DNA from: Fusobacterium ulcerans
Lineage (GTDB): Bacteria; Fusobacteriota; Fusobacteriia; Fusobacteriales; Fusobacteriaceae
DNA length: 64,000 nt
Direction: 5' to 3'
NCBI RefSeq assembly: GCF_003019675.1
Contig: NZ_CP028105.1
Coordinates: forward strand, 3,054,282 to 3,118,281
The notes under the pieces were generated by a model, which made no database searches, had not been told where the DNA came from, and was given only the letters and a program-made list of their open reading frames with translations. Of this stretch, positions 11,223 through 28,376 are shown in pieces. The translations under genes were made by a program, and so were the position numbers. Position 1 is the stretch's first letter, and every line of letters starts with the position of its first letter.

Positions 11223-11411
11223 ATGAAACTATTAAAAAATATATTGATAGGTTTAGCAATCTTATGGTTTGCATGGGTATTCCTATTGCAAAGATTAGGA
11301 GAACTCCTGTTCTTTTTTAATGCCCCACCAGCATTACAAATAATAATAGTAGTTGCTATAATTATTATAATAAGGCTAATATGGGTAGATAAAAATAATA
11401 AACATTATTAA
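11223..11411 (+). CDS. Small two-helix membrane protein
   Basis: A 62-aa hydrophobic protein with two membrane segments (ILIGLAILWFAWVFLL and ALQIIIVVAIIIIIRLIW) and a short charged tail (VDKNNKHY). AGAGGTG lies a proper distance before the ATG, so it is probably translated. I do not recognise a family. Its TAA stop (11409-11411) coincides with the first three bases of the degenerate terminal repeat of the CRISPR array, so the array abuts the gene without a gap. Confidence 0.6.
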   Translation: MKLLKNILIGLAILWFAWVFLLQRLGELLFFFNAPPALQIIIVVAIIIIIRLIWVDKNNKHY

Positions 11412-12532
11412 GAAAAACTTCAAAGTTACTGTTATACTCTGCATATACTCTTGTGGATCAAATGGATTTAAAAACTTCAAAGTTACTGTTATACAAAATT
11501 AGAAGTGCTGATGACCCAGCTCCTGCTGCATTTAAAAACTTCAAAGTTACTGTTATACTATATCTCAAAAACCTGTAACTTTAAAATGTTTAAGATTTAA
11601 AAACTTCAAAGTTACTGTTATACTTGGAGTAGAAACAGATGTAAATGAGCTAGATGATATTTAAAAACTTCAAAGTTACTGTTATACCAGTCTTTCCAGT
11701 TGAATGTCCTGAGGTAACAACAGATTTAAAAACTTCAAAGTTACTGTTATACTTTACCATAGCTCTATACCTACCTTTTTGTCGGTCATTTAAAAACTTC
11801 AAAGTTACTGTTATACTTAGGAATAGATATAATGCTGAATCCTGAAGCAGAAGATTTAAAAACTTCAAAGTTACTGTTATACAATTTTCACAAAGGATAT
11901 CTTCCAATAGATGATTAATTTAAAAACTTCAAAGTTACTGTTATACGATATTTTGCTGCATAGTGCATAGAAAGGAGAAATAAATTTAAAAACTTCAAAG
12001 TTACTGTTATACTGGAGAAGAGAATTCAAGGGAAGTTGAAAATGATAAATTTAAAAACTTCAAAGTTACTGTTATACAAAGTCTTATTTTCCAACCTCTT
12101 TCCCCCAAAAAAGATTTAAAAACTTCAAAGTTACTGTTATACATAGTTACTTGTAAAAAAGAACTTGAAGAAAATGCTTATTTAAAAACTTCAAAGTTAC
12201 TGTTATACTTTACACTGCTTTTTAAAGCAGAAGCTCCAAGAAGATTTAAAAACTTCAAAGTTACTGTTATACCCTTACAGTTAAATTTATATAGTTTATT
12301 ATTTCTGATTTAAAAACTTCAAAGTTACTGTTATACAAGCAGAAGAGGTGGAAATTAAAATATCTGAAAAATATTTAAAAACTTCAAAGTTACTGTTATA
12401 CTAGTAGAATATTAACTGAGTAGTTTTTAAATGCCAAATTTAAAAACTTCAAAGTTACTGTTATACTAGAAAATAATCTTACTTCACATTTTAAAAATAT
12501 TATATTTAAAAACTTCAAAGTTACTGTTATAC
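11409..12532 (-). CRISPR. CRISPR array 1 (type I-B), 18 repeats, 17 spacers
   Basis: Eighteen 29-nt repeats were located one by one at starts 11409, 11466, 11530, 11595, 11659, 11724, 11788, 11854, 11918, 11984, 12049, 12114, 12180, 12244, 12308, 12373, 12438 and 12504. Spacers are 35-37 nt except the last (11438-11465, 28 nt). In crRNA sense (minus strand) the repeat begins GTATAACAGT, continues with the mini-hairpin AACT-TTGA-AGTT and ends TTTAAAT, like clostridial I-B repeats. The leftmost repeat has its crRNA-sense 3' four bases altered, marking the leader-distal end, so the leader is on the right beside cas2 and transcription runs leftwards. Spacer 12402-12437 is a perfect match to array 2. 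Confidence 0.98.
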
Positions 12533-12702
12533 CTTCATCAAATAAGCATTTTATTTATTCTTTTCCATTCTTAACAAAGAATTTAAGAATTTTTTACCAC
12601 TTTTTTTCCAAGAGAGAGAAAAAATTCAGCAATTAATTTTTTTCTTCTCATTCTCCTTTAAAATCATCACTTCATAAATTCATCTGTTTTTTAACTTGGA
12701 AA
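12533..12702 (-). promoter_or_regulatory. Leader of CRISPR array 1
   Basis: This 170-base AT-rich stretch fills the gap between array 1 and the cas2 stop. It aligns without gaps with the leader of array 2. Shared elements at the same offsets from the repeat are TCAT-N-AAAT (offset 3-11), CTTTTTTTCCAAG (12600-12612, offset 68), TAATTTTTT (offset 102) and CTTGGAAA (12695-12702, offset 163). The CCAAG/CTTGG pair is an inverted repeat 95 bases apart. It should hold the array promoter and the spacer-integration signals. Confidence 0.75.
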
Positions 12703-12987
<285 letters not shown>

Positions 12988-13989
12988 CTACATCTTTTCC
13001 TTTATAGAGAACGGAACAAACTCTTTTCCCTCTAATAAAAATTTTATTAGCTTATATGCATCATATTTTACAGCAGTTATATAGCTAACCTTTCTCTTCA
13101 AAATAGGGTGTTCAAAAGTTTCATTCATCCTATCTTCCAAAGCACCTAAAAATATTTTTTTACCATCTTCATTTAAAATACAATAATTCAAACTCTTTTC
13201 AAAATGTTTTTCTACATTCAATTTTCTGTTATTTACACATTCAAAAATTGTTCTGAATACAATGATTGGTTTAAAAACCTCTGATAAATCTAAAGATAAT
13301 GAGAATCTTCTCTCAGATGGTGAATGTAAAAAGCTTATTGTCTGCTCTAAGTGTGTTTGATAAATTTGCCCAATAGTTTTAGTATATAGAATTGAATTTC
13401 CAAAAGAAATTAAAGCATTTATCGGATTATCTGGTGGCCTTTTAACCCTTTTATTCATAATAAAATCCTCTCTTAAAAAGATTTTAAAACTATCATAAAA
13501 TTTTGCCCAAATCTCTCCTTCTACTGCCATTATCTCATTTATATCATTACTCTCATTCAATCTTCTTTCTACATCATTAGAAAGCCACTCTAAATATTCT
13601 TTTAACTCTTTTTTATCATGACGATAATAGTGATAAAGTAGTTCATAAATATTTTTACCAATTCCCTGTACAATACTTTTTGCTATAGTTTCTTTATGAT
13701 TCTTATGAGCTTCTACCTGTTTTATTACTAACTTTCCACTGACATATTTCTCTCTTGGATAAAATGTTCCAGAATATCCCTCGTAGTGATTAAAAAAATG
13801 TAATGTAATACCATGCTTAGCTAAAAAATCAAAAAGCTTTGTATTCACAGAAATTTCGTCTAATGCAAATATCTCTTTAACTCCTTCAATAGGAATATAT
13901 GTTGTTTTACTTTCGTTTTTAAAACACAGCGAATTGTCTTTTCTTTCAAGACTTCCTTTACTCAAAATATACTTTGTTCCAGCTCCCAT
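12988..13989 (-). CDS. cas1: CRISPR integrase Cas1 (type I-B)
   Basis: Cas1 inserts new spacers next to the leader. The 333-aa protein shows the N-terminal beta domain (TKYILSKGSLERKDNSLCF) and the alpha-helical catalytic part with the metal ligands: Glu in VEGEIWAKFYDSF, His in FLHSPSERRFSL, and Asp in LDLSEVFKPI. I chose ATG 13989 because AAGGAG lies five bases upstream; the GTG two codons earlier is too close to that site. It sits between cas4 and cas2 in an adaptation module. Confidence 0.96.
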   Translation of the reverse strand: MGAGTKYILSKGSLERKDNSLCFKNESKTTYIPIEGVKEIFALDEISVNTKLFDFLAKHGITLHFFNHYEGYSGTFYPREKYVSGKLVIKQVEAHKNHKETIAKSIVQGIGKNIYELLYHYYRHDKKELKEYLEWLSNDVERRLNESNDINEIMAVEGEIWAKFYDSFKIFLREDFIMNKRVKRPPDNPINALISFGNSILYTKTIGQIYQTHLEQTISFLHSPSERRFSLSLDLSEVFKPIIVFRTIFECVNNRKLNVEKHFEKSLNYCILNEDGKKIFLGALEDRMNETFEHPILKRKVSYITAVKYDAYKLIKFLLEGKEFVPFSIKEKM

Positions 13990-13998
13990 ATACACTCC

Positions 13999-14481
13999 TT
14001 AAATATAGCAATATGAATAATATGCACATTTTTTACATTTATTATTTTTTTCAACTGGTGGTAATTCATCCTGCTCAACTAATTTTTCTATTTCCTCTAT
14101 TATATTCTTGATATATGTCTCATTTTCAGCAGTAAGTTCAATCTCATAGCTTTTTTTCGAAGATTTATTTTTTTCTATTACTTCTATTTTCCCTTTTTTA
14201 TCTATTCCTTTTTCTTTTAATTTCAAGAGATAATAAAGTACCTGCATTTTTGCTGCTTCAATATCTGCATCTGATTTTTTTATCTCTATTAAATAATCTT
14301 TTTTTATTTTATCTACTTTGATATTTTCTACAGTTATTTCATCAGTCTTTTTCTCTTCATGCATAGCTTTTCCAATTTTTACTAATTCACTTTCATCTTC
14401 CATATTTATTCTATTGTAATGCATATAGCATTGCCTTTTACAATGAATAAAATAATTTATAATTGTTCCATTTATAGGCAT
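13999..14481 (-). CDS. cas4: CRISPR-associated exonuclease Cas4
   Basis: Cas4 is an iron-sulfur RecB-like nuclease that trims prespacers and helps choose the PAM and orientation. The 160-aa protein has a first cysteine in IHCKRQCYMHYNRI, nuclease residues in KIGKAMHEEKK and around IEIKKSDAD, and the C-terminal cluster KCKKCAYYSYC. Length and order (cas3-cas4-cas1-cas2) are typical for I-B. GGAGGG precedes its ATG. Its presence matters for the finding below that one spacer may have gone in flipped. Confidence 0.95.
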   Translation of the reverse strand: MPINGTIINYFIHCKRQCYMHYNRINMEDESELVKIGKAMHEEKKTDEITVENIKVDKIKKDYLIEIKKSDADIEAAKMQVLYYLLKLKEKGIDKKGKIEVIEKNKSSKKSYEIELTAENETYIKNIIEEIEKLVEQDELPPVEKNNKCKKCAYYSYCYI

Positions 14482-14494
14482 AGACCCTCCATAG

Positions 14495-17080
14495 TTACAA
14501 TATCATTTCAGTATCTTCATCTGATTGTAGCTTCTTTCTATCAAATTTTCCATTTACAAAATATTTTTCTCCATCTCCAATATACCTAATATTATCTCCA
14601 ATACTTTCCTGATAAGATAATTTACGTGTCATTTCCACAGGAATATTATATGAAAATAGATCTACTTTCTCCATTACTTTAGATAATTTTACCCTTCTTT
14701 CAGCATATCCCATTTCATTATTTAAAAGTATTTCTTTAAAATCATTCCATACTTTATTTCCTAATATCTCTTCTCCTTCTATATTTATGTTTCTAGAGAG
14801 AAATATCATTTTTGTTCTTCTATCATCTGCTATTAATTTTAATCTTTTATATATTTCCTCAAAATTTAGTTGGACAACTTTGTCTTTTCTAAAATCATCT
14901 ATATTTTCTTCTTTATTTTCATCCTTAGAAAATTTTTCTAACGCCTCTAGAATTATAGTATAGTATTCATTAAAATTCTTATTTTTAAGAATCTCTCTCA
15001 TCTCTTCATTCATGAGTGTAAATCTATCCTGTATTCTCACATCTCCTTTATAGATATCTCCTCCATCATCTAATTTGAAAAAATAGGCTTTACAATTTTT
15101 TTTCTTACAAGAACGATTAATTCTTCCTAAAAATTGTTCATCAGCATCCAATATAGATATATTTTTGAATCCAATATCCATATCTATATCCACTCCTGCT
15201 TCAATTACCTGAGTTGCTACTAATATCATACTTTTTCTTTCTTTATTTTTTGCTTCTTTTATTATTCTTTTTCTTTCAGCTTTATTATCATCACCAGTTA
15301 TTAAGAAAATATCTTCTTTGCATACTTCATTGCTTTCTAATAATTTCTTGTAGAACTCAAAAGCAGAAGCTTTTTTAATAAATTCCACTACTACTTTTTG
15401 GTTCTTATGTTTTTCAAAAATAATTTTTTCTATTTTTTTTAATAGTTCTTCTCTCCCATATTCTTTCTCTAAAAGACAGAAATCCAAAGACACCCTTTCT
15501 CTAAATATTGAATTACTATAGTACTTTTCTCTGTTAGTTATAAGAGATGGAATTTTTGCCTCTTGGTCTAGTAAAAATGATAAGTTTGGAAGTGTTGCAG
15601 ACATAATAATTATTTTAATATTTAAAATATCTGCATATTTTTTTAAGAATATAATTATCTCTTTCCAGATTTTATTTTTATAACTTTGTATTTCATCCAT
15701 TATCACTACACTATTAGCTAAATGTGGGAGAGCAAAACTACTCTCCCTGTCAATTCCAAATAAAGTTTCAAAAAAATGGACATGAGTTGTCAAGACTATT
15801 GGAGAATGTATAAATTGTCTGTTTAATAGTGATCTTTCATAATCAATATTATCTTTTTTATACTCTTCTTCACTTTCAACTTCTTTTATAGGAGTTATTG
15901 AATTTATTACTGAAATACTCTCTTCTAAAGGTGAATTTTGAAATATTTCCCTCAAAGATGAATTTGTTTGCTCTACTAAAGTATTAAATGGAAATATGTA
16001 GAATATTTTATTCAATTCTCTATTTTTTTCCAATAATCTCAATGCCAGATTAACAGAGGTAACAGTTTTCCCCGAACCAGTTGGAGCTTCTAAAAACACA
16101 ATATTCTCTTTATTAACCATTTCTAAATTTTTTTCTGCTTCTATAAACATTTCGCTTCTATAGCAGTTTATATTATCTTTTTTAAAATATTTCCCTGTTT
16201 CCTGATGTAATTTGATCCCTTTATATATTTCTGTACTATTAAAAACAGATCTATATTCATCAATATTTGTCAAAAGATTTAAGTTATCTATTGGCTTTCC
16301 AGAGCTATACTCACTTGTAGCATAGAAATCTGATGATACTAATAAAGAATACAATAGTTTTGTGTAAATATAGTAGTCAATAGAATTCCAGTCTTTATTT
16401 TCAACATATTTATTCCATTTTTCCCCATTTATTTTTAATTTTTCAAATATTTTAAAAAACTTTCTACTTGCTTTTATTGAAAGTTTTAAATTAGGACAAT
16501 AATTATTTACCTCATCAAACAGTTCTTTATATCTTTCATAATTTGTTGTTATCTCACAAAAGAAATCCTCATTTAAATTTTTAGTTGAAGAATGGTGTCT
16601 TGATATAACATAAGAATTCAATACAATAAAGACAAAACATTTAAAAATATCATCATTATTCAATTTATTTTCTGAACATAACTTAATAAGCTTATTAGCA
16701 AAATAATCAATATATATTCTTGCAGATAAGTTAGAGTGTCTTTTACTTTGACATAAAAGAACTCTTTCAAATATATCATTTCTCATTTTATCAATTTGGA
16801 AATTTATATTTAATTTACCAATATCATGCATACAAGATGCATTAATTATCATTTCATTCCAAAATTTTTTCACAGTTTCATTTTGACCAAAAAATTTTTC
16901 TGCGAGTTTATCAAAAACTATTTTTAAATTTTTATCTTCATATATTTTTTTATTATATTTTACGACTAAATCGGAATGTTCTAATAATGTCTCTGAATTC
17001 TTTCTATCTGATATATGAGCTAAAATTTTATCTTCATCTTTTACATATTTTTCTATTGAAAAAAGTTCTTCTTCAAACAT
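14495..17080 (-). CDS. cas3: CRISPR helicase-nuclease Cas3 (HD plus helicase)
   Basis: Cas3 is recruited by Cascade to nick, unwind and degrade target DNA. The 861-aa protein carries the HD nuclease at residues ~1-270 (LEHSDLV, CMHDIGKLN, RHSNLSARI, SRHHSST) and an SF2 helicase after it: Walker A LEAPTGSGKTVT, DEIQSY as the DExx box, MSATLPN, VATQVIEAGVDID and QFLGRINRSCKK. HD and helicase are in one chain as usual for I-B. All motifs are intact, so interference is expected to be active. TAGGAGG precedes the ATG, seven bases after cas5. Confidence 0.97.
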   Translation of the reverse strand: MFEEELFSIEKYVKDEDKILAHISDRKNSETLLEHSDLVVKYNKKIYEDKNLKIVFDKLAEKFFGQNETVKKFWNEMIINASCMHDIGKLNINFQIDKMRNDIFERVLLCQSKRHSNLSARIYIDYFANKLIKLCSENKLNNDDIFKCFVFIVLNSYVISRHHSSTKNLNEDFFCEITTNYERYKELFDEVNNYCPNLKLSIKASRKFFKIFEKLKINGEKWNKYVENKDWNSIDYYIYTKLLYSLLVSSDFYATSEYSSGKPIDNLNLLTNIDEYRSVFNSTEIYKGIKLHQETGKYFKKDNINCYRSEMFIEAEKNLEMVNKENIVFLEAPTGSGKTVTSVNLALRLLEKNRELNKIFYIFPFNTLVEQTNSSLREIFQNSPLEESISVINSITPIKEVESEEEYKKDNIDYERSLLNRQFIHSPIVLTTHVHFFETLFGIDRESSFALPHLANSVVIMDEIQSYKNKIWKEIIIFLKKYADILNIKIIIMSATLPNLSFLLDQEAKIPSLITNREKYYSNSIFRERVSLDFCLLEKEYGREELLKKIEKIIFEKHKNQKVVVEFIKKASAFEFYKKLLESNEVCKEDIFLITGDDNKAERKRIIKEAKNKERKSMILVATQVIEAGVDIDMDIGFKNISILDADEQFLGRINRSCKKKNCKAYFFKLDDGGDIYKGDVRIQDRFTLMNEEMREILKNKNFNEYYTIILEALEKFSKDENKEENIDDFRKDKVVQLNFEEIYKRLKLIADDRRTKMIFLSRNINIEGEEILGNKVWNDFKEILLNNEMGYAERRVKLSKVMEKVDLFSYNIPVEMTRKLSYQESIGDNIRYIGDGEKYFVNGKFDRKKLQSDEDTEMIL

Positions 17081-17087
17081 GTTCCTC

Positions 17088-17843
17088 CTAATAGAATTCT
17101 ATTATTTGATTATTTACTTTTGCAAAATTACTTTTATCCTTTAAAATACATTTTTTATTAGTAAAAATTAAAGTCTCAACCACATATTGATTAGAAATAT
17201 TATGAAGGGAAAGAGGTAATTTTTCTTCATATTTATAATCATATTTTATCTCATCTTCTTCTGGTGCCAGAAAATCAAGTTCCTCTTCCTCAGAAAATCC
17301 TTCTATACTTTTTTTCATAAATAGAGAATTTATCTCACTTTCATCTTCTAAAAAGTTTTCTCCTTGAAGTATCTCTACATCATTTATTGTTGCCAAATGA
17401 TCATTCTTTCCAAGATATACTGTATATTCAAAATTATAGTTCTGCATTCTTTCTTTCAATTCTTTATGAATATCTGTATCCTCTATTTTTATAAAAATAT
17501 CCCATTCTACATCTTCCAGCCACTGCTCTTTAACAATCAGATTTCCACCCTCTTCGTTACTTGCATATCCTACTGAATTATTAAAAAACTGGATTTTTTT
17601 TGAAAAACTTCCATTAGTATTTTTAGGCATGATAGAAATTTTGATATCTTTTAATTTTTCATAAAACTCTGGATATTCCTTTTCTCCTTGTGAATTATAT
17701 CCTCCATAGCCCATTACAGCTCCTAATAGCCCCAATAATGAAACCTTATGTATGTGTCCATAAGAAAAATATACATAAGAATTGACTTCTGGAATTTTAA
17801 AAAAAGCTGTTCTTCCACTTAAGGTAAATTTTAATATCTCCAT
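17088..17843 (-). CDS. cas5: Cascade subunit Cas5 (type I-B)
   Basis: Cas5 caps the 5' handle of the crRNA in Cascade. The 251-aa protein begins with LKFTLSGRTAFFKIPEVNSYVYFSYGHIHKVS and the glycine-rich LLGLLGAVMGYGGYN, characteristic of Cas5b/Cas5h N-terminal RAMP folds. An acidic insert (SEEEELDFLAPEEDEIKYD) lies near residues 175-195. It starts just after cas7 with GAGGT as its ribosome site. Confidence 0.92.
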   Translation of the reverse strand: MEILKFTLSGRTAFFKIPEVNSYVYFSYGHIHKVSLLGLLGAVMGYGGYNSQGEKEYPEFYEKLKDIKISIMPKNTNGSFSKKIQFFNNSVGYASNEEGGNLIVKEQWLEDVEWDIFIKIEDTDIHKELKERMQNYNFEYTVYLGKNDHLATINDVEILQGENFLEDESEINSLFMKKSIEGFSEEEELDFLAPEEDEIKYDYKYEEKLPLSLHNISNQYVVETLIFTNKKCILKDKSNFAKVNNQIIEFY

Positions 17844-17845
17844 GA

Positions 17846-18790
17846 TTATACCTCTTTTCTAGTAAAGATATTATATTCTTTAGCTCCTTTTATATCATGT
17901 TTTACTTTCACATTTAAAGTATTGTAATATATCTCTACAGATAAAATATTATCTTTGAATTGATTTATAAGCTCATCAAATCCTAATTCTATTACATCAC
18001 AATTTTTTTCTTTAGAAAATTTTATATATTGAGCCAGTTCTGGAAGATAATATCCCTCTTTTACTTCTATAAACAACGCAAACTCATTTTCACATCCTAA
18101 TTTTGAGTTTGAATTAAAGAAAGTAGCTGAAGTTAGAGCTGCATCTTTAAATTTCTTATAGTCCTCTTCTGTGTATCCTTCAGTCATTCCCATTTTTACA
18201 AAATCTCTATACACTTGTGGATTAATCACAAATGGATAAAAATAGTGAGCCTCATTGCTTACTATCTTTGTTCCCAAAGTTGATTGACTAGCTTCTCCCA
18301 TTATTCCATCCTTGCTACCATCTCTAAATGGTGACAATATTTGTTGTTCTTCTGTATATGTATCTGCATATTTATTAAATCCTTGTCCTATCTGAACTGC
18401 CCCTGTAATAGATACATTATTTTTTTCTTCCGCAAAAGTTGCCCCAAAATTCTTTACATCTATTGCTTTAAAAAGATTTTTTATTACATTAGTTTTATCT
18501 TTTTCTACTTTTAAATTAGCTTCAAATATTTCATCATATCTCTCTCTTAATGATTTAGGTCTTACTCCTATTTCTCCTTTTTTTCCTTCTCCACTATCTA
18601 CCTTCATACTTTTTATATATAGAACCTTTTCTCCCATACTTTCCCACATTTTTTTCATTGGATATTTCAGGGCCTTATCACTTCCAAATACTTCTCCTGA
18701 TGAAGTTGTTTTAGGAAATCCTGTAAAATCTGCATTCCAATTGGCCATCATTGATCTTATTCCTATTACACCATATATTCTATTTTTCAT
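17846..18790 (-). CDS. cas7: Cascade backbone subunit Cas7 (Csh2, type I-B)
   Basis: Cas7 polymerises along the crRNA spacer. The 314-aa protein opens NRIYGVIGIRSMMANWNADFTGFPKTT and continues with the RPKSLRERYDEIFEANLK and AVQIGQGFNKY segments found in Csh2-type Cas7. The gene starts after the cas8 stop with GGAGGAG upstream, so translation is likely coupled. Confidence 0.94.
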   Translation of the reverse strand: MKNRIYGVIGIRSMMANWNADFTGFPKTTSSGEVFGSDKALKYPMKKMWESMGEKVLYIKSMKVDSGEGKKGEIGVRPKSLRERYDEIFEANLKVEKDKTNVIKNLFKAIDVKNFGATFAEEKNNVSITGAVQIGQGFNKYADTYTEEQQILSPFRDGSKDGIMGEASQSTLGTKIVSNEAHYFYPFVINPQVYRDFVKMGMTEGYTEEDYKKFKDAALTSATFFNSNSKLGCENEFALFIEVKEGYYLPELAQYIKFSKEKNCDVIELGFDELINQFKDNILSVEIYYNTLNVKVKHDIKGAKEYNIFTRKEV

Positions 18791-18792
18791 AA

Positions 18793-20577
18793 TTATTCAT
18801 TCTCCTCCCCATTAGTTTCTTTAGTTTCATTATTAGCTTCATTTTCTTCTTTAGCTGATTTTTCATAAATCAATGAGTCAGCTAAATATCCTCCTAATAA
18901 CCTATCCATATTTATTTTTTCACTCTCAGTCTCATATCCTAATACTCTTTCATAAAGAGTATTAAATTTTATACTGTAAAAACCTATATCATAAGCATAT
19001 TTTCTAAAAAGTTTATAAATTTCTCTTTTTAACCCTTCAATATCTCTATTTTCAATAATTCTTACTGCCAATTCATGTGTTTTTACAGTTATTTTATTTC
19101 TAGAAATTAAAAATTTTGCTAATTGCCCTAAAGCGAAGAAATATTCTTCATCATTTTCTATTTCTCCTACACCAGTTTCAAATATATTTCTAAACTTTTC
19201 TTTTATTTCTTGATGTTTATTCACAGTCATACCCCTTTCTTTTTTTATACTATCGTCTATACTAGTCATTAAATTAAACATGTCATATGCTTCTGTTATA
19301 TAATCTTTTTTACACAAAGAATTTTTTATAAGTTCTAAAAATATTTCTTTATAATTATCAGCAAATTTTTTCATGTCTCCTTTATATATTAGTTCAAAAA
19401 AGATTTCTCTATATCTATTTGCCACATTTCTTATTCTTTCATCAAATACTTCTAATTCTCCAAAAATCATTCCATAAAGTTTTCCATCAAATAAAAGACT
19501 ATTCAATCTAGCAGCTAATTCAAAGTTTTTACTTATTGAAATTCCATATTCTAATTTACTATTTTCCCCATTTCCTAAGCAGTCTAATATTTTTATTTCA
19601 GGATAAATTTCAGCTTTATAATTTGGAATAATATCATATCTCTCTATTGCACTTTCACTTTTATCTTTTCTTATTCTTAGATAGTACCCAGTGAAATCAT
19701 CACTCAAAGACTCTCTATTTCCCAAAGGAATTATTTCTTTTTTATCAGATGAAATATATATATTTCTTTTTCCTGAATTTGCCATATTATAGATATAGTC
19801 AAAGAATTTTTTTTGCTTAAATACCTCTTCTTCATTCAATAAATAAGGAACAGTATATTTTTCTTTTCTTGTTTTATTTTCTAAATATGGTTTTTTAGAA
19901 TTCAAATTGAGATTATTATTTGGCAATCCATAAGTTTCATCATTTATTATTACATTATAGTCTACACTGTTGTATATATTAGGAATAACATATCTCTCAT
20001 TCTCTTTCTTATACTCTTCTATATCTTCATCAAAGAATATCTTGATATATTCCTTCCCATCTTTTATTTCTTCTTTTATCTTATATAGATTTTCTTTAAT
20101 CCATTCATAATTTTTTTGAATCTTTTCTTCTGAAGGTTTTCCTAACTTTTCTTCAAGTTGTGCATATACCCTTTTCTTTTCCCCTTTATCATATTTGAGA
20201 AATGGATTTTTTAAAATTTCATAATACTTCTCTATACTTTCTTCTAATTCTTTTTTCTTTTCACTTAGAACATTATTCTTAACAAAAAAAGATAGATAAT
20301 TGTTAGAATGAATTTGTTTTTTTCCATCAATTGGTTTATTCATATCTAATAATCTACTTAAATAATCTCTTTCTGCTAAATATTCATAATCTTCTATAGT
20401 TCTTCTATTTAAATTTTCTTCTATTTTTTTTGTTCTTTCTATTTTTGTATGCCTATAACTTCCATTACTTTTAACTATAAAATAGTCACCTGGCTCTAAT
20501 TCATAGCTGTCTGTTATAAATCTTTCTCCTTTTTCATTGTATATTTCAGTAAAGATTTCAACACATTCTCGTAACAA
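18793..20577 (-). CDS. cas8b: Cascade large subunit Cas8b (Csh1)
   Basis: The 594-aa protein is the PAM-sensing large subunit of I-B Cascade, of the Csh1 (TM1802-like) group. Recognition rests on length, position between cas6 and cas7, and segments such as ELEPGDYFIV, GLPNNNLNLNSKKPYLENKT and the helical C-terminus (ALGQLAKFLISRNK, EIYKLFRKYAY). It starts with TTG at 20577, supported by GAGGAGG nine bases upstream; no ATG lies nearby. In I-B systems the small subunit Cas11 can be made from an internal start in cas8b. An in-frame ATG at 19230 would give a 145-aa helical C-terminal protein, but its purine-rich AAAGGGG stands too close to be a good ribosome site. Confidence 0.9.
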   Translation of the reverse strand: MLRECVEIFTEIYNEKGERFITDSYELEPGDYFIVKSNGSYRHTKIERTKKIEENLNRRTIEDYEYLAERDYLSRLLDMNKPIDGKKQIHSNNYLSFFVKNNVLSEKKKELEESIEKYYEILKNPFLKYDKGEKKRVYAQLEEKLGKPSEEKIQKNYEWIKENLYKIKEEIKDGKEYIKIFFDEDIEEYKKENERYVIPNIYNSVDYNVIINDETYGLPNNNLNLNSKKPYLENKTRKEKYTVPYLLNEEEVFKQKKFFDYIYNMANSGKRNIYISSDKKEIIPLGNRESLSDDFTGYYLRIRKDKSESAIERYDIIPNYKAEIYPEIKILDCLGNGENSKLEYGISISKNFELAARLNSLLFDGKLYGMIFGELEVFDERIRNVANRYREIFFELIYKGDMKKFADNYKEIFLELIKNSLCKKDYITEAYDMFNLMTSIDDSIKKERGMTVNKHQEIKEKFRNIFETGVGEIENDEEYFFALGQLAKFLISRNKITVKTHELAVRIIENRDIEGLKREIYKLFRKYAYDIGFYSIKFNTLYERVLGYETESEKINMDRLLGGYLADSLIYEKSAKEENEANNETKETNGEENE

Positions 20578-20595: not shown

Positions 20596-21291
20596 TTATA
20601 CCCATCTTGGATTCACATAAGAAAATCCTCTTGCATTCATCTCTCCCAGCCCTACGCTCAGGCATAGAAAAGCTAATTTTTGAGCAGTTTCATTTTTAGC
20701 AATTCCCAGAACAAGCTTATCTCCAAGTAGATTAATATTCTTGTATTTTACTTTCACAGGAACTCTATTTTTAAATTCAATAAAATTAAATAAATCAATA
20801 TTTTCATCTAATTCCTCATTAAAAATAGAATTATATTTTTTTATTATATTTAGCTTTAATCTATTTTCATACTCTTCCAATGTAATATTCTTTTTCCAAT
20901 ATCCATTTTCTGTTTTCAGTATCGTAGGTGTAACAGAAACAAGCTTATCAATATATCTATATTCCATTTCCCTCTCTTTGATTACTAATCCTTTTAATTC
21001 CTTCGTTATATTATCTTTTAAATATTTCATAAAATGCTCTTTTAATTTTTCAGAAATAGTTCTTATCTGTATTGTATATATTTCTCCAGCATTATACTTT
21101 TTAGTATTAACTTTTACTGGATAAAAAGAATTAAAACAATACTCTTTCACTTTTCTATCTTTATGATACTCTTTCCAGTACTCATCCTTATCAAAAGTAG
21201 AATCTATAAAAGCAGCTATTTTTTCTATGGTTTTATATGGTTCTATATCTTCTAATAAAAAGACTTTCAATTCTAGAATCCAACTTTTCAT
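20596..21291 (-). CDS. cas6: crRNA-processing endonuclease Cas6
   Basis: Cas6 cuts pre-crRNA within the repeat to leave an 8-nt 5' handle. The 231-aa RAMP protein ends with the glycine-rich loop FLCLSVGLGEMNARGFSYV, diagnostic for Cas6. It is the first gene of the operon, with AAAGGGAGGG upstream. The two arrays have repeats that differ in six places, yet both keep the stem AACT/AGTT and the last 11 bases, so this single Cas6 can plausibly process both. Confidence 0.94.
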   Translation of the reverse strand: MKSWILELKVFLLEDIEPYKTIEKIAAFIDSTFDKDEYWKEYHKDRKVKEYCFNSFYPVKVNTKKYNAGEIYTIQIRTISEKLKEHFMKYLKDNITKELKGLVIKEREMEYRYIDKLVSVTPTILKTENGYWKKNITLEEYENRLKLNIIKKYNSIFNEELDENIDLFNFIEFKNRVPVKVKYKNINLLGDKLVLGIAKNETAQKLAFLCLSVGLGEMNARGFSYVNPRWV

Positions 21292-21496: not shown

Positions 21497-23012
21497 ATTT
21501 AAAAACTACTCAGTTAATATTCTACTCAGAAGCTTTTAAAAATCTAGAATTTGGAATATAATTTAAAAACTACTCAGTTAATATTCTACTAATTATAGTT
21601 CAGAAAATTTTAATAAAGAATTGAAATTTAAAAACTACTCAGTTAATATTCTACTGGCTACATATTTACTAGAATAATCTATAAGCGAATTTAAAAACTA
21701 CTCAGTTAATATTCTACCCCTCTATAAAATAGAGGAGATAGCTTCTAAAACTTATTTAAAAACTACTCAGTTAATATTCTACAATAACTGCCTTTCAAGA
21801 GTGCTTAATGTTAACACAATTTAAAAACTACTCAGTTAATATTCTACTGCTTCACAATTCCGAAAAAGCTTTCTGGAAAGATAATTTAAAAACTACTCAG
21901 TTAATATTCTACGTGTACTCATAGCCAAAGTACTTCATAGAGCTTTTTATTTAAAAACTACTCAGTTAATATTCTACGTCATTGATCCACTTGCCATGGC
22001 CGTTGCTATAGAATTTAAAAACTACTCAGTTAATATTCTACAGAGAAATAATCATGGACACTCTACCCTAAATACATATTTAAAAACTACTCAGTTAATA
22101 TTCTACTTTTACAAATTTTTTCTCAACAGAACTTTTTTTCTCATTTAAAAACTACTCAGTTAATATTCTACGAACTGATATAAACGAAATTTTAAAGGTA
22201 TCTACATTTAAAAACTACTCAGTTAATATTCTACGTTAGGAATAGGATTTGTTTATTTATATAAAAAATCATTTAAAAACTACTCAGTTAATATTCTACA
22301 GCTACTGGAGCAGTAAGGACAATAGGAGATTTTTTATTTAAAAACTACTCAGTTAATATTCTACTTTTTTGCTTTTTCTCTCTCTTTTCCCCAGTAATAA
22401 ATTTAAAAACTACTCAGTTAATATTCTACACCTTTTAGATTCTCTAATTTGTCAGAATTTTGTTTATTTAAAAACTACTCAGTTAATATTCTACAGAAGA
22501 GAAGTTATCAAGACAGCAAAGAACTTTGGCATTTAAAAACTACTCAGTTAATATTCTACTATGAAAGAGATTAAACATGATGATGAATGGCTTTGATTTA
22601 AAAACTACTCAGTTAATATTCTACATATTAAAAAATTAAATTTATAAAAAAATTAAGGAGATTTAAAAACTACTCAGTTAATATTCTACTAATAATATAA
22701 AATAATTATTTAAGAGACTAAAAAATTTAAAAACTACTCAGTTAATATTCTACGGGTAATATCCCCAGATAAACTAGCAGATATAGAAAATTTAAAAACT
22801 ACTCAGTTAATATTCTACTTAGTCCATGTTACAGGATTGTTCAAAGTTCCTAATATTTAAAAACTACTCAGTTAATATTCTACTGGAGAATATAAGTTTA
22901 TAAATGCAATAGAAGTCAAATTTAAAAACTACTCAGTTAATATTCTACTCTTCACTTGTAACATTCCCAAGTGCCTCTACCCCATTTAAAAACTACTCAG
23001 TTAATATTCTAC
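21497..23012 (-). CRISPR. CRISPR array 2 (type I-B), 24 repeats, 23 spacers
   Basis: Twenty-four 29-nt repeats start at 21497, 21561, 21626, 21689, 21754, 21819, 21884, 21949, 22013, 22078, 22143, 22206, 22271, 22336, 22401, 22466, 22531, 22596, 22661, 22725, 22790, 22855, 22920 and 22984; spacers are 34-36 nt. In crRNA sense the repeat starts GTAGAATATT, has the mini-hairpin AACT-GAGT-AGTT and ends TTTAAAT. It matches the array 1 repeat at 23 of 29 positions; three of the six differences fall in the hairpin loop. Transcription should run leftwards from the leader at 23013. The repeat at 22531-22559 with its immediate flanks is the exact source of an array 1 spacer. Confidence 0.98.
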
Positions 23013-23193
23013 GCTCATAAAATCAAACTTCACAATATTTATCAATCTCTCTATTCATGATTTTATCAAGCTTTTCCTTCTTTTTTTCCAAGTGCAGTAA
23101 AATTTTTATAAAATAATTTTTTCCTTCCAAATTGCTCTTAAAATATACCTTAGAAAAAATATTCAATTTTCCAGCTTGGAAACTTCTTTATTT
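23013..23193 (-). promoter_or_regulatory. Leader of CRISPR array 2
   Basis: About 170-180 bases between array 2 and the next gene. CTTTTTTTCCAAG (23080-23092), TAATTTTTT (from 23114) and CTTGGAAA (23175-23182) occur at offsets 68, 102 and 163 from the repeat, identical to array 1, as does the repeat-adjacent TCAT-N-AAAT. The leader is therefore homologous to that of array 1 although the repeats differ. Confidence 0.75.
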
Positions 23194-23805
23194 TTAATCT
23201 ACTAAATTCACTCCATACATAATTCCTAGTGACCCTTTTTTTATCTTAATATTCATAGTCTTTTTCCCTAAATATTTATCATAAAAATCCTTTTCAATAA
23301 GGAATTTTACTTCCTCGCCATTTACATCTGCTATCATATAGTAAAAATTTATATAATATTTACTTCCTGGTTTTTTAAAATATTTTTTCTGCTCTATAAT
23401 CATTTTTATAATTTTATAGTCTTTTTGCTCTCCCTTGCTCCCTATTCTATTGATAAAAAACTTTATTCTCATATAGATATATTTAGCAATAAAGCTTCCC
23501 AGCCATAATCCTATACAGAGTGATATCGTTCCTTTTAATGCAATTACCTCTTTTGTTGATACAACCTCTCCCTGTAAGTAATACTGGCAGTAGAAGATAA
23601 AGGCTGAAACTAAAAGCCCAATTACAATAGGGGAAAATCTTCCTATTCTGTCTTCAAACATAACTACTTTCCATGTAGAAAAATATATCATTATTGGGAT
23701 TATCATCAATCCAAAGTAATAGTGATGATTAATACCTAGTAATAAAAATAGCAATAAAAAGCAAATTGAAATGTTTTTTACAGTTTTTTCTGAAAAGTTT
23801 TTCAT
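23194..23805 (-). CDS. Membrane protein of unknown function
   Basis: A 203-aa protein with about four membrane segments in the first half (ICFLLLFLLLGI, YYFGLMIIPIMIYF, IVIGLLVSAFIFYC, GTISLCIGLWLGSFIA) and a soluble, basic C-terminal ~80 residues (KYYINFYYMIADVNGEEVKFLI...). I recognise no family. The start at 23805 is chosen because GGAGGAGAAAG precedes it and it overlaps the queH stop as ATGA; the open frame continues upstream only as a basic non-hydrophobic run. It is translationally coupled to queH. Confidence 0.75.
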   Translation of the reverse strand: MKNFSEKTVKNISICFLLLFLLLGINHHYYFGLMIIPIMIYFSTWKVVMFEDRIGRFSPIVIGLLVSAFIFYCQYYLQGEVVSTKEVIALKGTISLCIGLWLGSFIAKYIYMRIKFFINRIGSKGEQKDYKIIKMIIEQKKYFKKPGSKYYINFYYMIADVNGEEVKFLIEKDFYDKYLGKKTMNIKIKKGSLGIMYGVNLVD

Positions 23806-24455
23806 CTTTCTCCTCCATCTTTTTCTTTCTTCTCTTTTTCTATTTTTTCTCTTTCTACCTTGGAAAATATACAGCCACAATAGTCTTGTCTGTACAATTC
23901 ATATTCCTTTGAAATTTCAATTGATCTCAAATATCTGCTTTTCTTTTTGAAATCTCCATTGAGAAATTTGATACCATATTTTTTTCCAAGTTCTTCTCCT
24001 ATTTCATTTATCCATTGAGCATTTTTCATAGGACTTATGCTCAACACAGTTGTAAAATAGTCATAACCCAACTCCTGAGCTTTTTTCGCTGTTTCTTCCA
24101 GCCGGAGATTATAGCACTGATGGCACCTTTTCCCTCCTTCTCTTTCATTTTCCAGTCCCTTTACCTTTTGAAAAAAATCAATCTCAGGATTATATTCACC
24201 TTCAACTACATTTATTTTATATCCTCTTTTTTTATGATACTCTTTCTGTTCCTCAAGTCTTTTCAGATATTCCTCTTCAAAGGTTATATTAGGATTAAAA
24301 AAATATACTGTTATTTCAAAATACTCCTGTAAAAATTCTAAAATTGCAGAACTACATGGAGCACAACATGAATGAAGTAAAAGTCTAGGCTTATTTTCAC
24401 TTTTTTTTATTTCTTGCAATTGATTTTCCATTGCTAAATCATAGTTAATTTTCAT
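23802..24455 (-). CDS. queH: Epoxyqueuosine reductase QueH
   Basis: QueH reduces epoxyqueuosine to queuosine in the tRNA wobble base, replacing the B12-dependent QueG in many anaerobes. The 217-aa protein has LLLHSCCAPCSSA (vicinal Cys-Cys and CxxC), GGKRCHQCYNLRLEETA and YRQDYCGCIFS, the cysteines that hold an iron-sulfur cluster. The tail is highly charged (KVEREKIEKEKKEKDGGER). It overlaps the following membrane-protein gene. Confidence 0.94.
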   Translation of the reverse strand: MKINYDLAMENQLQEIKKSENKPRLLLHSCCAPCSSAILEFLQEYFEITVYFFNPNITFEEEYLKRLEEQKEYHKKRGYKINVVEGEYNPEIDFFQKVKGLENEREGGKRCHQCYNLRLEETAKKAQELGYDYFTTVLSISPMKNAQWINEIGEELGKKYGIKFLNGDFKKKSRYLRSIEISKEYELYRQDYCGCIFSKVEREKIEKEKKEKDGGER

Positions 24456-24532
24456 TATTTAAACCTCCAATATTGATTATATCATAGGTTTGTTTTTTAT
24501 CAAAGTTCTCCAACACAAAAATGGAAGAGAGT

Positions 24533-24961
24533 TTATCTCTTCCACTCCATTAAATGTTCTTTTTCATTTGTCTTTTCATCAATCTCTGTATTAGTTATTT
24601 TAAATCCTGATTTAAGATAGAAATTCATTGCTCTTACATTTCTATCATATACTGCCAGCTGTAATTTATCATGATCTGCCTTTAAAAAATCAATTATTTT
24701 ACTTCCAATACCTTTTCTCTGGCAGTCTACTTTTAAGAATAATCCACCTATGAATATATTTTCTATCAAACTTACAAAACCTTTTATCTCTCCATCTTCT
24801 TCAGAAACATAAGTATCTGAATTTGGCAGATAATTATTTTTTACATTATCATAATTTTCCAGCCAATATTCATCTGGAATAAAGTTTTGAGCCTCCATTG
24901 TTGATTCTTTCCATAATTCCATAACTATATCAATATCATCATTTCTTAAATTTCTAATCAT
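24533..24961 (-). CDS. GNAT-family N-acetyltransferase
   Basis: A 142-aa acetyl-CoA-dependent acetyltransferase. Motif A is clear (GLFLKVDCQRKGIGSKIIDFLK, with the Q/R-x-x-G-x-G/A loop), and AVYDRNVRAMNFYLKSGFKITNTEID is the usual C-terminal strand-helix. It resembles the YjaB/PhnO-like group. The acceptor substrate is unknown. It overlaps the preceding small gene by eight bases. Confidence 0.88.
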   Translation of the reverse strand: MIRNLRNDDIDIVMELWKESTMEAQNFIPDEYWLENYDNVKNNYLPNSDTYVSEEDGEIKGFVSLIENIFIGGLFLKVDCQRKGIGSKIIDFLKADHDKLQLAVYDRNVRAMNFYLKSGFKITNTEIDEKTNEKEHLMEWKR

Positions 24962-25121
24962 TCTTCTCCTTTTTCATCTTTTTTAATTCTTCTATTTGGG
25001 CACTTAATTTCTTATATTTTTTGAGAAGAGCATTTCTTTCTGGTTCATAATCACACTCATGTAGTTCTTCTTTCAGTTCATCGATCATTTTTTCCAGTTT
25101 TTCAATTTCTTCTTTACTCAT
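24954..25121 (-). CDS. Small coiled-coil protein
   Basis: A 55-aa, charged, almost entirely helical protein (MSKEEIEKLEKMIDELKEEL... KKYKKLSAQIEELKKMKKEKND) with heptad-like spacing. GGAGG lies nine bases before the ATG at 25121; two ATG codons closer to that site are less likely starts. Function unknown. It is joined by overlap to the GNAT gene. Confidence 0.65.
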   Translation of the reverse strand: MSKEEIEKLEKMIDELKEELHECDYEPERNALLKKYKKLSAQIEELKKMKKEKND

Positions 25122-25220
25122 CTTCATCATCCTCCACAAGATTATTTACCCTAATATCTTATATACCTTTGGAAATGTAAAAAATCAATAGCCTTTCTTA
25201 ATTTATTTTAAATAAAAATT

Positions 25221-25565
25221 TTACTTTAATTTTGCTATCCATTCTTTCCATATTTCAGGCTGATAACCTAATGTTGCTTCATTTTTAAATCTTCCAATAG
25301 GACTTTTAAATAAAATCGGATTTTCCAGTAAAGTTTCTTCTAAATCAAATACCATATACTGAAGATTTCTTTTTTTATATTCTGTTCCCTCTGTATCAAT
25401 TAATTCTTCAAGAGGATATTTATTAATTATACTTTTTAATTCTCCTTTAGATGGAGCTTTTTCTTTTAAGTTTATAAATTGGATTTTTATTCCTCTCTCC
25501 TTAAAAAATCTCTCAGCTTTCTTTGAATCATTGCAATTTTTCTTTCCAAAAATCTGTATTATTAT
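25221..25565 (-). CDS. ArsC/Spx-family protein with a non-standard start codon
   Basis: Translation of this interval gives an intact ~114-aa ArsC-like thioredoxin-fold protein: IQIFGKKNCNDSKKAERFF at the N-terminus (the active cysteine of the CxxS-type motif is in NCNDS), then INLKEKAPSKGEL, EELIDTEGTEYKKRNLQYM and a C-terminal SPIGRFKNEATLGYQPEIW. The frame has no ATG, GTG or TTG between the in-frame sbcC stop (TAG at 25578-25580) and the first conserved residues; the codons are GAG GGG ATT GAT ATA ATA ATA CAG. TAGGAGGGG forms a strong ribosome site, and the first ATA (25563-25565) stands eight bases after it. Initiation at ATA or ATT is inferred. Members reduce or sense thiols; the substrate is not known. 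Confidence 0.75.
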   Translation of the reverse strand: MIIQIFGKKNCNDSKKAERFFKERGIKIQFINLKEKAPSKGELKSIINKYPLEELIDTEGTEYKKRNLQYMVFDLEETLLENPILFKSPIGRFKNEATLGYQPEIWKEWIAKLK

Positions 25566-25577
25566 ATCAATCCCCTC

Positions 25578-28376
25578 CTATAGCTCTATGACTTTCTGTG
25601 CCATCTCCCTAAAAGTATCATCATGTGTTACTATTATGCTCTGTTCCAGATTTTTTAATATCTCTCCAATAGAATCAGCCAAACTTCTTCTTCTTTCTGT
25701 ATCCAGATTGTTAGTAGGCTCATCAAATATTGAAAATTTGCTTTCTGTAAATAGCTCGCTCATTGCTCCTCTTATGGAAATAGCTACTGCAACCTGTTCT
25801 CCCCCTGAAAGCTGTTCAAATTTTAATTCTCCTCTGTCTCCATCTAAAAATACAACATATTTATTTTTATCTTCATTAGACCAGACTATCTTTTCTCCTC
25901 TTCCAGTTATTTTTCTAAAATTTTCAGTTGCAAGTATTTCAATCTCTTTAAGCATATTTTTAGAGACTTCCTTACCCATTGATTTTATTTTTTCTCTAAA
26001 TATCTTAGTAAGTTCCAATTTCATATTTAATTTTTCTAAATATTTTCTTTTATTTTTCAGTAAATCTTCATATTTCTTTATTTCATCTAATTTCATTTTT
26101 AAATTTTCTATTTCCCTGTTTACTGCCCCTAATTTCTCTCTTATTTCTTCAATATCAAATGTAACTTTGAGGTCTTTCTCTTGAAGGGTTTTCAGATCTA
26201 TCTTTTCCATCTCTTCTCTTTTTAATTTTATCAAGATATTTTTTTCCTGAAATCTCATTTCACTATTCTTGATGGTAGTTTTGATACTTTCAAGATTCTT
26301 TTCCAGTTTGCTCTTCTCCATAGCTTTTTTATAGTTTTCAAGATAGAGATTATTACTATTTTCCAAAGTATCTATTTTCTTTTCTATTTTATCAATTTTT
26401 TCATTGATACTTAGAAGTTCATCAGAAAAAATTCTATTGTCATTAATGAACTTTCTCTTTTCATCTATAGATTCTATATTTTTTCTGATTTCTATATTCT
26501 GCAATTCTATATTCTTTAGTTCCATCCCTATACTTTTATTCAAACTATCTATTTCTTTTTCAAGTTCATTTTTTACAGCTTCAGATTTTTCTAAATCTAA
26601 ATTATCAATTTTTGTTTTCAGTGTTATTTTTATCTCAGAAAGCTTTTCTTTATTTTCAATACTGTTTTCCAGCTTAAAGTTTTTTAATTTTAACTTTTCA
26701 TTTTCAATTTTAGATTTCCCTGTTTCCAGCTTTAACTTCTCTTGGATGAATTCTACTTCTTTCTCAGTTATTTCTTTAGATAAAGTATCTAATCTTATTA
26801 TTTTTTCTATGATTTCATTTTTATTTGTGAGATTTTCATTTATTTCTTTTACAGAATTTTTCTTGCTTTCTATCTCTTCTATATATTTCTCTCTTTTATC
26901 CTTAAAATACTCATCTATATTTTTTCCATCAAGGTTTTTACATTGTTCTTTTAAATATGGACAATATGAAGTTTTCAACATCTCAAAAGCTTCTTCATTC
27001 TCTTTTAGTAAGAGTTCCTTTTTCAATATGTCGTCTTCCAAAATCTTTTTCTTCTTTTCAGACTCTTCTATTCCAGAAAGCTGTTTATCAAGATTTTCAT
27101 CCGTGAGATATTCTCTTTTAGCTTTTTCTTTATTAATCTCTTCCAGTTTCTCTTCTAATTTTATTTCAAAGGTTCTGATATTATTTTCTCCAGCTTCAAG
27201 TTTTCTTTCAAACTCTTCCAACTTTACTAAAAGAGGTATTATTTTATCTAATTCAGATTTATACTCAACAGCTTTTTCCTTTTTCTCTATTATTTCTTTT
27301 TCTATTTCAAATAATTTATTTTTTCTTTCTAGGAGCAGAGATTCATTATTCTCTTTTTTATTCTCAAAGACTTTGATCTCTCCATCAATTTCTGAGTTCA
27401 ATTTCTCCAGAATATTTATCTCTTTTTCCTTTAAAAGACACTCTTCTTTTATCTTTTCTAACTCTTTTTTTCTAATTTTTAATCTATTTATTTCTAAAGA
27501 ATATTTTTGATACTCCTCATATTTTTCTTTATTTTCTTTTACTATTTTTTCTGAAATTTCACTCTCTTTTATAGAGGCAGAAATCTTCCCCAGCTCTTCA
27601 TTTTTATTTTTTATATTTTCAGATAGAGCATTTATTTCTCCAGTAAGTTTTTCTATCTCTAAATTTGTAATATTATATTTATTTAGGAGTTCTTTTATTT
27701 TATTTTTTTCCTCATTCAATAGATTTAGACTTAGATTATATTCTTTAGCTCTTTCTTTTTCAAAGTCCAGTTTTTCCTTTATATCAGCAGGATCTTCCAT
27801 TATCTCTGATATATTTTCCATACTGTTTTTTTCTATTTCAATATCTTTCTCATATTTATTTACAGCATCTCTTGAGTATCCTTCATATATTTTTTTATAT
27901 ATGTCAGTATTAAAAACTTTATTAAATATTTTTTCCCTCTCATTATCCTTTTCTTTAAAGGAAGATATAAATTCATTTTGTTTAGCAACTATTACATTGT
28001 CATATATTCCTTTTAGATCTCCTTTAATACCACACAACTCTCTTATTCTTTCTTCTTTTCCTACGAGCTGAAGTTCAGGATTATCTTTTTTGTATATACT
28101 GGTAGCTCCAGGAATTTTTCTTGTAACTATATATTCTTCTCCATCTATTCCAGTAAATTCTATTTCTATCTTTGCACTTTTCTTTCCATATTTTATAGCT
28201 TCTCTTTGATTTCCTCCTCTCAATTCAGAATCAAAAAGAGCATAACCTATTGCTTCAAGAATAGATGACTTCCCTTTTCCATTTTCTCCAAGAAGAAGAT
28301 TTATTCCACTATCAAATTCAACATCTAATTTATCATGAATCCGGTAATTTTCCAGATGTATTCTATTTATTTTCAT
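25578..28376 (-). CDS. sbcC: DNA double-strand break repair ATPase SbcC
   Basis: SbcC is the Rad50-like SMC ATPase that works with SbcD to cut hairpins and process DNA ends. Of 932 aa, the N-terminus has the Walker A GENGKGKSSILEAIGYALF, long coiled coils fill ~170-800, and the C-terminus has the signature FEQLSGGEQVAVAIS and Walker B SIFDEPTNNLDTERR. The apex where a zinc hook CPxC is expected (residues ~470-480) reads YCPYLKEQCKN, with cysteines at about 472 and 479, so the spacing is unusual. It overlaps the end of sbcD by 14 bases. Confidence 0.95.
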   Translation of the reverse strand: MKINRIHLENYRIHDKLDVEFDSGINLLLGENGKGKSSILEAIGYALFDSELRGGNQREAIKYGKKSAKIEIEFTGIDGEEYIVTRKIPGATSIYKKDNPELQLVGKEERIRELCGIKGDLKGIYDNVIVAKQNEFISSFKEKDNEREKIFNKVFNTDIYKKIYEGYSRDAVNKYEKDIEIEKNSMENISEIMEDPADIKEKLDFEKERAKEYNLSLNLLNEEKNKIKELLNKYNITNLEIEKLTGEINALSENIKNKNEELGKISASIKESEISEKIVKENKEKYEEYQKYSLEINRLKIRKKELEKIKEECLLKEKEINILEKLNSEIDGEIKVFENKKENNESLLLERKNKLFEIEKEIIEKKEKAVEYKSELDKIIPLLVKLEEFERKLEAGENNIRTFEIKLEEKLEEINKEKAKREYLTDENLDKQLSGIEESEKKKKILEDDILKKELLLKENEEAFEMLKTSYCPYLKEQCKNLDGKNIDEYFKDKREKYIEEIESKKNSVKEINENLTNKNEIIEKIIRLDTLSKEITEKEVEFIQEKLKLETGKSKIENEKLKLKNFKLENSIENKEKLSEIKITLKTKIDNLDLEKSEAVKNELEKEIDSLNKSIGMELKNIELQNIEIRKNIESIDEKRKFINDNRIFSDELLSINEKIDKIEKKIDTLENSNNLYLENYKKAMEKSKLEKNLESIKTTIKNSEMRFQEKNILIKLKREEMEKIDLKTLQEKDLKVTFDIEEIREKLGAVNREIENLKMKLDEIKKYEDLLKNKRKYLEKLNMKLELTKIFREKIKSMGKEVSKNMLKEIEILATENFRKITGRGEKIVWSNEDKNKYVVFLDGDRGELKFEQLSGGEQVAVAISIRGAMSELFTESKFSIFDEPTNNLDTERRRSLADSIGEILKNLEQSIIVTHDDTFREMAQKVIEL

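What the first reader, a model, noticed from the sequence alone, without database searches (positions are those of the whole stretch)
12402..12437. A CRISPR spacer in array 1 was taken from array 2 of the same locus
The 36-nt spacer at 12402-12437, read as its reverse complement, is identical over all 36 bases to 22526-22561. That segment is one complete 29-nt repeat of array 2 (22531-22559) plus the last five bases (TTGGC) of the spacer before it and the first two (TA) of the spacer after it. The unique flanks identify exactly which of the 24 repeats was the source, so this is not just a resemblance between repeats. It is the second spacer from the leader, hence a recent acquisition. Spacers that capture another CRISPR array's repeat-spacer junction are rare; here donor and recipient arrays share one cas operon.
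Basis: seen in the sequence. Interest (0 to 1): 0.95.

Follow-up and report, generated by a model that had tools for sequence, protein, structure and literature searches.

The report
CRISPR spacer copied from neighbouring array
A bacterial CRISPR system appears to have stored a piece of one of its own memory banks as if it were an invader; it is a clear natural example of a mistake so far seen mainly in laboratory adaptation experiments, and the orientation of the copied piece suggests why the cell survived it.

Summary
The spacer at 12402-12437 is the reverse complement of 22526-22561 over 36/36 bases: one array-2 repeat plus 5 and 2 unique flanking bases. No other copy exists in the closed 3.54 Mb genome, in 98 genomes of the phylum, or in the plasmid and viral collections. 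Among 132 spacers from this genome and its relatives it is the only one made of a repeat (29 nt shared; next best 9 nt).

The two arrays flank one apparently intact type I-B cas operon and both are read on the minus strand. Fourteen non-self protospacers give a 5'-TCA/TCT PAM (9/14 on the sense side, 0/14 on the other). The donor has ACT on the sense side but TCA on the other. A second perfect self-spacer (A1s11, from the cell's own trkA) behaves the same way: CAG sense, TCT at the wrong end. Best reading: Cas1-Cas2(-Cas4) captured chromosomal DNA at a normal PAM and it went in back to front, so its crRNA sees no consensus PAM and is tolerated. A plasmid-matching spacer (A1s1) was added later.

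Active CRISPR loci are reported hotspots for self-acquisition, so this is a natural record of a known kind of error, not a new mechanism.

The parts
12402..12437 (-). spacer A1s2 of array 1, the self-derived spacer (36 nt; contains an array-2 repeat in inverted orientation)
   Evidence: exact match to 22526-22561 on +; unique in genome
22526..22561 (+). donor segment: 5 nt TTGGC (part of spacer A2s8), one array-2 repeat (22531-22559), 2 nt TA (part of spacer A2s7)
22562..22564 (-). TCA read on the minus strand: consensus PAM at the 'wrong' end of the donor (would be the capture PAM if the spacer was integrated flipped)
22523..22525 (+). ACT: the trinucleotide the A1s2 crRNA would meet as PAM; not TCW
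11409..12532 (-). CRISPR array 1: 17 perfect repeats GTATAACAGTAACTTTGAAGTTTTTAAAT plus degenerate terminal repeat (11409-11437), 17 spacers
12533..12702 (-). leader of array 1 (end towards cas2 approximate)
   Evidence: 78.6% identity with the leader of the corresponding array in congener G010
21497..23012 (-). CRISPR array 2: 24 perfect repeats GTAGAATATTAACTGAGTAGTTTTTAAAT, 23 spacers
23013..23190 (-). leader of array 2 (outer end approximate)
   Evidence: 77.9% identity with the leader of the corresponding array in G010; 94.7% over 95 nt to sister contig L054
11817..11853 (-). spacer A1s11: second perfect self-match, to the cell's own trkA (G000:C1:649896-649932); also with TCW only at the wrong end
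12467..12503 (-). spacer A1s1 (newer than A1s2): matches plasmid-type contig of G010 with TCA PAM, 1 mismatch
12337..12372 (-). spacer A1s3 (older than A1s2): matches plasmid-type contig of G010 with ACA, 1 mismatch
12703..12987 (-). cas2
   Evidence: TIGR01573 4e-13; PADLOC Cas2b
12988..13995 (-). cas1 (type I-B)
   Evidence: TIGR03641 1e-121
13999..14481 (-). cas4
   Evidence: TIGR00372 6e-20; PADLOC Cas4b 5e-54
14495..17080 (-). cas3 (HD and helicase domains, full length)
   Evidence: TIGR01587, TIGR01596; PADLOC Cas3b 2e-284
17088..17843 (-). cas5b
   Evidence: TIGR02592 8e-54
17846..18790 (-). cas7
   Evidence: PF05107 8.5e-40
18793..20577 (-). cas8b
   Evidence: PADLOC Cas8b 3e-161, profile covered 1-559/559; no hit in NCBIfam or Pfam
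20596..21291 (-). cas6
   Evidence: TIGR01877 2e-17; PADLOC Cas6b 1e-85

Best explanation
The type I-B adaptation machinery (Cas1-Cas2, probably with Cas4) of this lineage captured a 36-bp piece of its own array 2 as a prespacer and inserted it at the leader of array 1. Shown: identity, unique donor repeat, spacer-sized and in-register insertion, and a complete cas operon. Inferred: the prespacer was cut at a normal TCA PAM on the minus strand, inside the end of spacer A2s7, and integrated in reversed orientation. Its crRNA therefore meets ACT rather than TCW beside the donor site and causes little or no self-attack. The same pattern in the trkA self-spacer A1s11 suggests that reversed integration is how self-spacers survive here. 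Unlike A1s11, a correctly oriented A1s2 would carry an array-2 repeat in sense inside the guide, which Cas6 should cut, so for A1s2 reversal is not strictly needed for survival (inference). The confidence given is for self-capture from array 2; for the reversed-integration step it is about 0.65.
For: 36/36 identity with a unique junction. No alternative donor in 98 phylum genomes, viral contigs, genome contigs or plasmids. Spacer length of 36 nt, the commonest length in the arrays. Intact cas set. PAM from 14 non-self protospacers: TCW 9/14 at the 5' end, 0/14 at the other end; for the two perfect self-spacers 0/2 and 2/2. Fisher p = 0.018; chance that both show TCW at the wrong end is about 0.045 squared, or 0.002 (after removing two rows that are array self-hits). 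A newer plasmid-matching spacer lies in front of it. CRISPR loci are reported self-acquisition hotspots and flipping is documented in P. atrosepticum (PMC5059440); hotspots also upstream of the E. coli array (PMC10011333), and at active CRISPR loci in P. furiosus and H. volcanii (PMC8406132). The C. difficile I-B PAM is YCN, which ACT does not fit and TCA does (PMC8406132).
Against: Flipping is rare in the one system measured (<0.5% of spacers), so with only two self-spacers a plain acquisition at a non-consensus ACT PAM remains possible; a neighbouring spacer, A1s3, matches its plasmid with ACA. DNA from a sibling cell with the same array 2 cannot be excluded. No strain series of the same species was available. 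Cas activity and array expression are not shown.
Confidence: 0.85

Rival explanations
1. Captured in normal orientation at a non-consensus ACT PAM from the cell's own array 2; tolerated because ACT does not license interference.
For: Sense flank is ACT, and NCW-like ACA occurs for A1s3. Flipping is rare elsewhere. Type I-B H. volcanii accepts ACT (PMC8406132).
Against: The other end carries the consensus TCA, and the second self-spacer A1s11 shows the same reversal (TCT) with a non-matching CAG sense flank.
Confidence: 0.3
2. Donor was not the cell's own chromosome but incoming DNA (sibling-strain DNA, plasmid or phage) that carried the same stretch of array 2.
For: The neighbours A1s1 and A1s3 both match plasmid-type contigs of G010, so plasmid DNA was being sampled at about that time. 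A contig in the viral collection carries R2-type arrays.
Against: No viral, plasmid or other genome record holds the 36-mer or the flanking spacers A2s7/A2s8. The G010 plasmid-type contigs hold no array of this type. The sister contig's spacers are all different.
Confidence: 0.1
3. The spacer is maintained because its crRNA regulates the system: it is antisense to all 24 array-2 repeats in the pre-crRNA and could dampen array-2 crRNA maturation.
For: Predicted duplex with the array-2 repeat -38.9 kcal/mol versus -5 to -11 for seven other array-1 spacers; both arrays are read from the same strand.
Against: No expression data. The complementarity follows automatically from the origin of the spacer. 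A single case, at a young position, with no conservation.
Confidence: 0.05
4. Assembly or recombination artefact.
For: Repeats are error-prone regions.
Against: Single-contig genome; exact spacer length, in register between two perfect array-1 repeats, inverted relative to the donor, with PAM at one end.
Confidence: 0.02

Closest known systems
Self-targeting (chromosome-derived) CRISPR spacers, as reviewed by Wimmer and Beisel 2020 (PMC6990116)
   Same: A spacer with a perfect match to the host's own chromosome, in a genome with full-length cas genes and a non-consensus PAM at the target
   Different: The target here is the repeat of the sister array of the same locus rather than a gene or prophage; the guide is mostly repeat sequence
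CRISPR-locus hotspot of naive acquisition in Pectobacterium atrosepticum I-F (PMC5059440), with analogous reports for E. coli I-E (PMC10011333) and for P. furiosus / H. volcanii I-B (cited in PMC8406132)
   Same: Spacers taken from the cell's own active CRISPR locus; flipped spacers with the PAM at the wrong end are described in P. atrosepticum
   Different: Those are deep-sequenced laboratory populations; this is a fixed spacer in a natural genome, followed by a further acquisition
Archaeal spacers matching cas genes of other CRISPR systems (Brodt et al. 2011, PMC3285040)
   Same: A CRISPR locus is the source of a spacer
   Different: There the targets were mostly cas genes of other systems; here a repeat-spacer junction of the same locus

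Membership tests
Type I-B CRISPR-Cas system | cas6-cas8b-cas7-cas5b-cas3-cas4-cas1-cas2 gene set with I-B specific Cas1, Cas5, Cas8b | tested here: met
Type I-B CRISPR-Cas system | 5' PAM at protospacers matching its spacers | tested here: met
   TCW at 9 of 14 non-self protospacers, 5' side only
Self-derived spacer | perfect match elsewhere on the own chromosome, outside its own position | tested here: met
   36/36 at 22526-22561
Self-derived spacer | no better external donor | tested here: met
   none in 98 phylum genomes, viral contigs, genome contigs or plasmids; strains of the same species were not available
Flipped spacer | consensus PAM at the 3' end of the spacer's protospacer and none at the 5' end | tested here: met
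   3' side TCA, 5' side ACT; the 5' ACT is not fully excluded as a weak PAM
Autoimmune (interfering) self-targeting spacer | crRNA expressed and target licensed by a functional PAM | not testable with these tools
   no expression or interference data; the target array is intact with 24 perfect repeats

The most novel reading that the evidence does not exclude
The captured repeat has become a built-in antisense guide: crRNA A1s2 pairs with every array-2 repeat in the pre-crRNA and lowers maturation of array-2 guides, so that one array controls the other.
Probability: 0.05. Interest if true: 0.75.

Novelty: new member of a known kind. Interest (0 to 1): 0.38.

Why it matters
It is a clean natural record that a CRISPR adaptation machine can sample its own sister array, with the donor repeat identified to the base. 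Together with the trkA self-spacer it suggests a simple rule for which self-spacers survive: those whose consensus PAM ends up on the wrong side. That rule can be tested across genomes by asking whether perfect self-spacers carry the PAM at the 3' end more often than foreign ones do.

Tried and rejected
Protospacer search in the phage collection with all 40 spacers: no match. Intramolecular folding of repeat-A1s2-repeat: not among the six most stable of the 40 repeat-spacer-repeat units, so self-sequestration by a hairpin was dropped. A1s15 looked faintly like an array-1 repeat (19/28, shuffle p 0.02), but with 94 spacers tested this is chance. Slipped PAM for A1s2: the sequence read at the sense end (AAGAACT|TTGG) shows no TCW in frame or within 3 nt, so slipping does not explain it. 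Strain comparison: only one genome per species is held; the nearest contig (L054, 92% identical over 8 kb) shares no spacer with this genome. Rfam scan: no RNA family in the region. Naming the organism through genome contigs failed.

Full report
Observation. The segment 12402-12437 lies between two perfect array-1 repeats. Its reverse complement, TTGGCATTTAAAAACTACTCAGTTAATATTCTACTA, is identical to 22526-22561. That place holds one array-2 repeat (22531-22559), the five bases before it and the two after it. In the whole 3.54 Mb single-contig genome the 36-mer occurs nowhere else; the next-best sites are other array-2 repeats with 3 mismatches. Given the repeat, the seven flanking bases fit any of the 24 repeats by chance with probability about 0.001. 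Among 132 spacers from this genome and its relatives the longest stretch shared with any of four repeat types is 29 nt for this spacer and at most 9 nt for every other.

Anatomy. A complete type I-B operon, cas6-cas8b-cas7-cas5b-cas3-cas4-cas1-cas2, lies on the minus strand between the arrays. Array 2 (21497-23012, 24 perfect repeats) lies upstream of cas6 and array 1 (11409-12532) downstream of cas2. Each leader, at the high-coordinate end, is about 78% identical to the leader of the corresponding array in congener G010, and the degenerate last repeat of array 1 is at the opposite end. Both arrays are therefore read on the minus strand and the spacer is second from the leader. The two repeats differ at 6 of 29 positions.

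PAM. Spacers from this genome, three congeners, a sister contig found in the viral collection and the genome's own orphan arrays were matched to protospacers in the genus. The table lists 16 non-self rows, of which two (L034p6 and L074) are hits of array spacers to their own arrays and were removed by hand. Of the remaining 14, nine have TCA or TCT directly 5' of the protospacer and none has it at the other end. The background rate of TCW is 0.045. The sense flank of A1s2 is ACT, while its other end, read inward, is TCA. The only other perfect self-match among the 40 spacers, A1s11, lies in the cell's own trkA gene and has CAG on the sense side and TCT on the other. The chance of TCW at the wrong end in both cases is about 0.002; Fisher test on orientation, p = 0.018.

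Mechanism. The simplest account is that Cas1-Cas2, probably with Cas4, took a chromosomal fragment at a normal PAM and the fragment went into the leader end of array 1 reversed. The crRNA then meets ACT at its target. The related C. difficile I-B system uses YCN for interference (PMC8406132), which ACT does not fit. Flipped spacers with the PAM at the wrong end are described in P. atrosepticum, at under 0.5% of spacers (PMC5059440). That low rate is why an ordinary acquisition at a poor ACT PAM remains a serious rival. In the correct orientation the guide would have contained an array-2 repeat in sense and Cas6 would be expected to cut it; this is inference from the sequence.

Timing and survival. 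Spacer A1s1, acquired after A1s2, and A1s3, acquired before it, both match plasmid-type contigs of G010, near a MobA/MobL relaxase gene and in a Rep3 initiator gene. Adaptation thus went on after the self-spacer was gained. In P. atrosepticum, by contrast, chromosome-derived spacers were almost always the last acquired (PMC5059440). Array 2 still has 24 perfect repeats. Both facts fit a self-spacer that does little harm.

Donor. The 36-mer is absent from 98 genomes of the phylum other than this one, from viral contigs and from genome contigs; the donor region is absent from plasmid records; the flanking spacers A2s7 and A2s8 are absent from viral contigs. The G010 plasmid-type contigs carry no such array. 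DNA of a sibling cell with the same array cannot be excluded.

Consequence at RNA level. The A1s2 crRNA is antisense to the array-2 repeat (-38.9 kcal/mol against -5 to -11 for seven other array-1 spacers). Whether this affects array-2 crRNA maturation is untested; the complementarity follows from the origin of the spacer and is not in itself evidence of function.

Known context. Active CRISPR loci are reported sources of self-spacers in I-F (PMC5059440), upstream of the array in E. coli I-E (PMC10011333), and in archaeal I-B systems (cited in PMC8406132). In C. difficile I-B, functional PAMs were not over-represented among chromosome-derived spacers, which the authors attribute to loss by autoimmunity. 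Archaeal spacers matching cas genes of other CRISPR systems are known (PMC3285040). The held papers that I searched contain no report that I found of a fixed natural spacer made of a sister array's repeat, but most subscription journals are not in that library. I file this as a new, unusually clear member of a known kind.

Noticed in passing
11817-11853 (spacer A1s11) and G000:C1:649896-649932: A second perfect self-matching spacer: 37/37 to the cell's own trkA gene, with the consensus TCT at the wrong end; homologues in four congeners differ by 3-5 bases.
   Followed up: yes
22430-22465 (spacer A2s9) and L038:5226, L039:1912: This spacer matches two places in the own genome with 2 and 7 mismatches concentrated at the seed end and no TCW flank; the first lies in a gene with a phage tail-fibre domain, so these look like resident prophages that escaped the spacer.
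   Followed up: partly
L074 (G000:C1:215500-222500) and L075 (G000:C1:3200500-3212500): Two further small or degenerate arrays with related repeats elsewhere in the genome. A sequence at G000:C1:3206049-3206085 in the second matches a spacer of congener G010 at 36/37 with repeat-like flanks, so a spacer is shared between species.
   Followed up: partly
L053 and L054 (IMGVR_UViG_2940373808_000004): A contig listed as viral begins and ends in CRISPR arrays and is 92% identical to window 21624-29544 at one end; one spacer occurs in both arrays with the same repeat variant, as if copied between arrays.
   Followed up: partly
L036:2790-3208: In congener G009 an array-like stretch repeats nearly the same 36-nt spacer (GAAGAAAGT...) about six times in a row.
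   Followed up: no
12467-12503 and 12337-12372: The spacers on either side of the self-spacer both match plasmid-type contigs (relaxase MobA/MobL, Rep3 initiator) of congener G010.
   Followed up: yes
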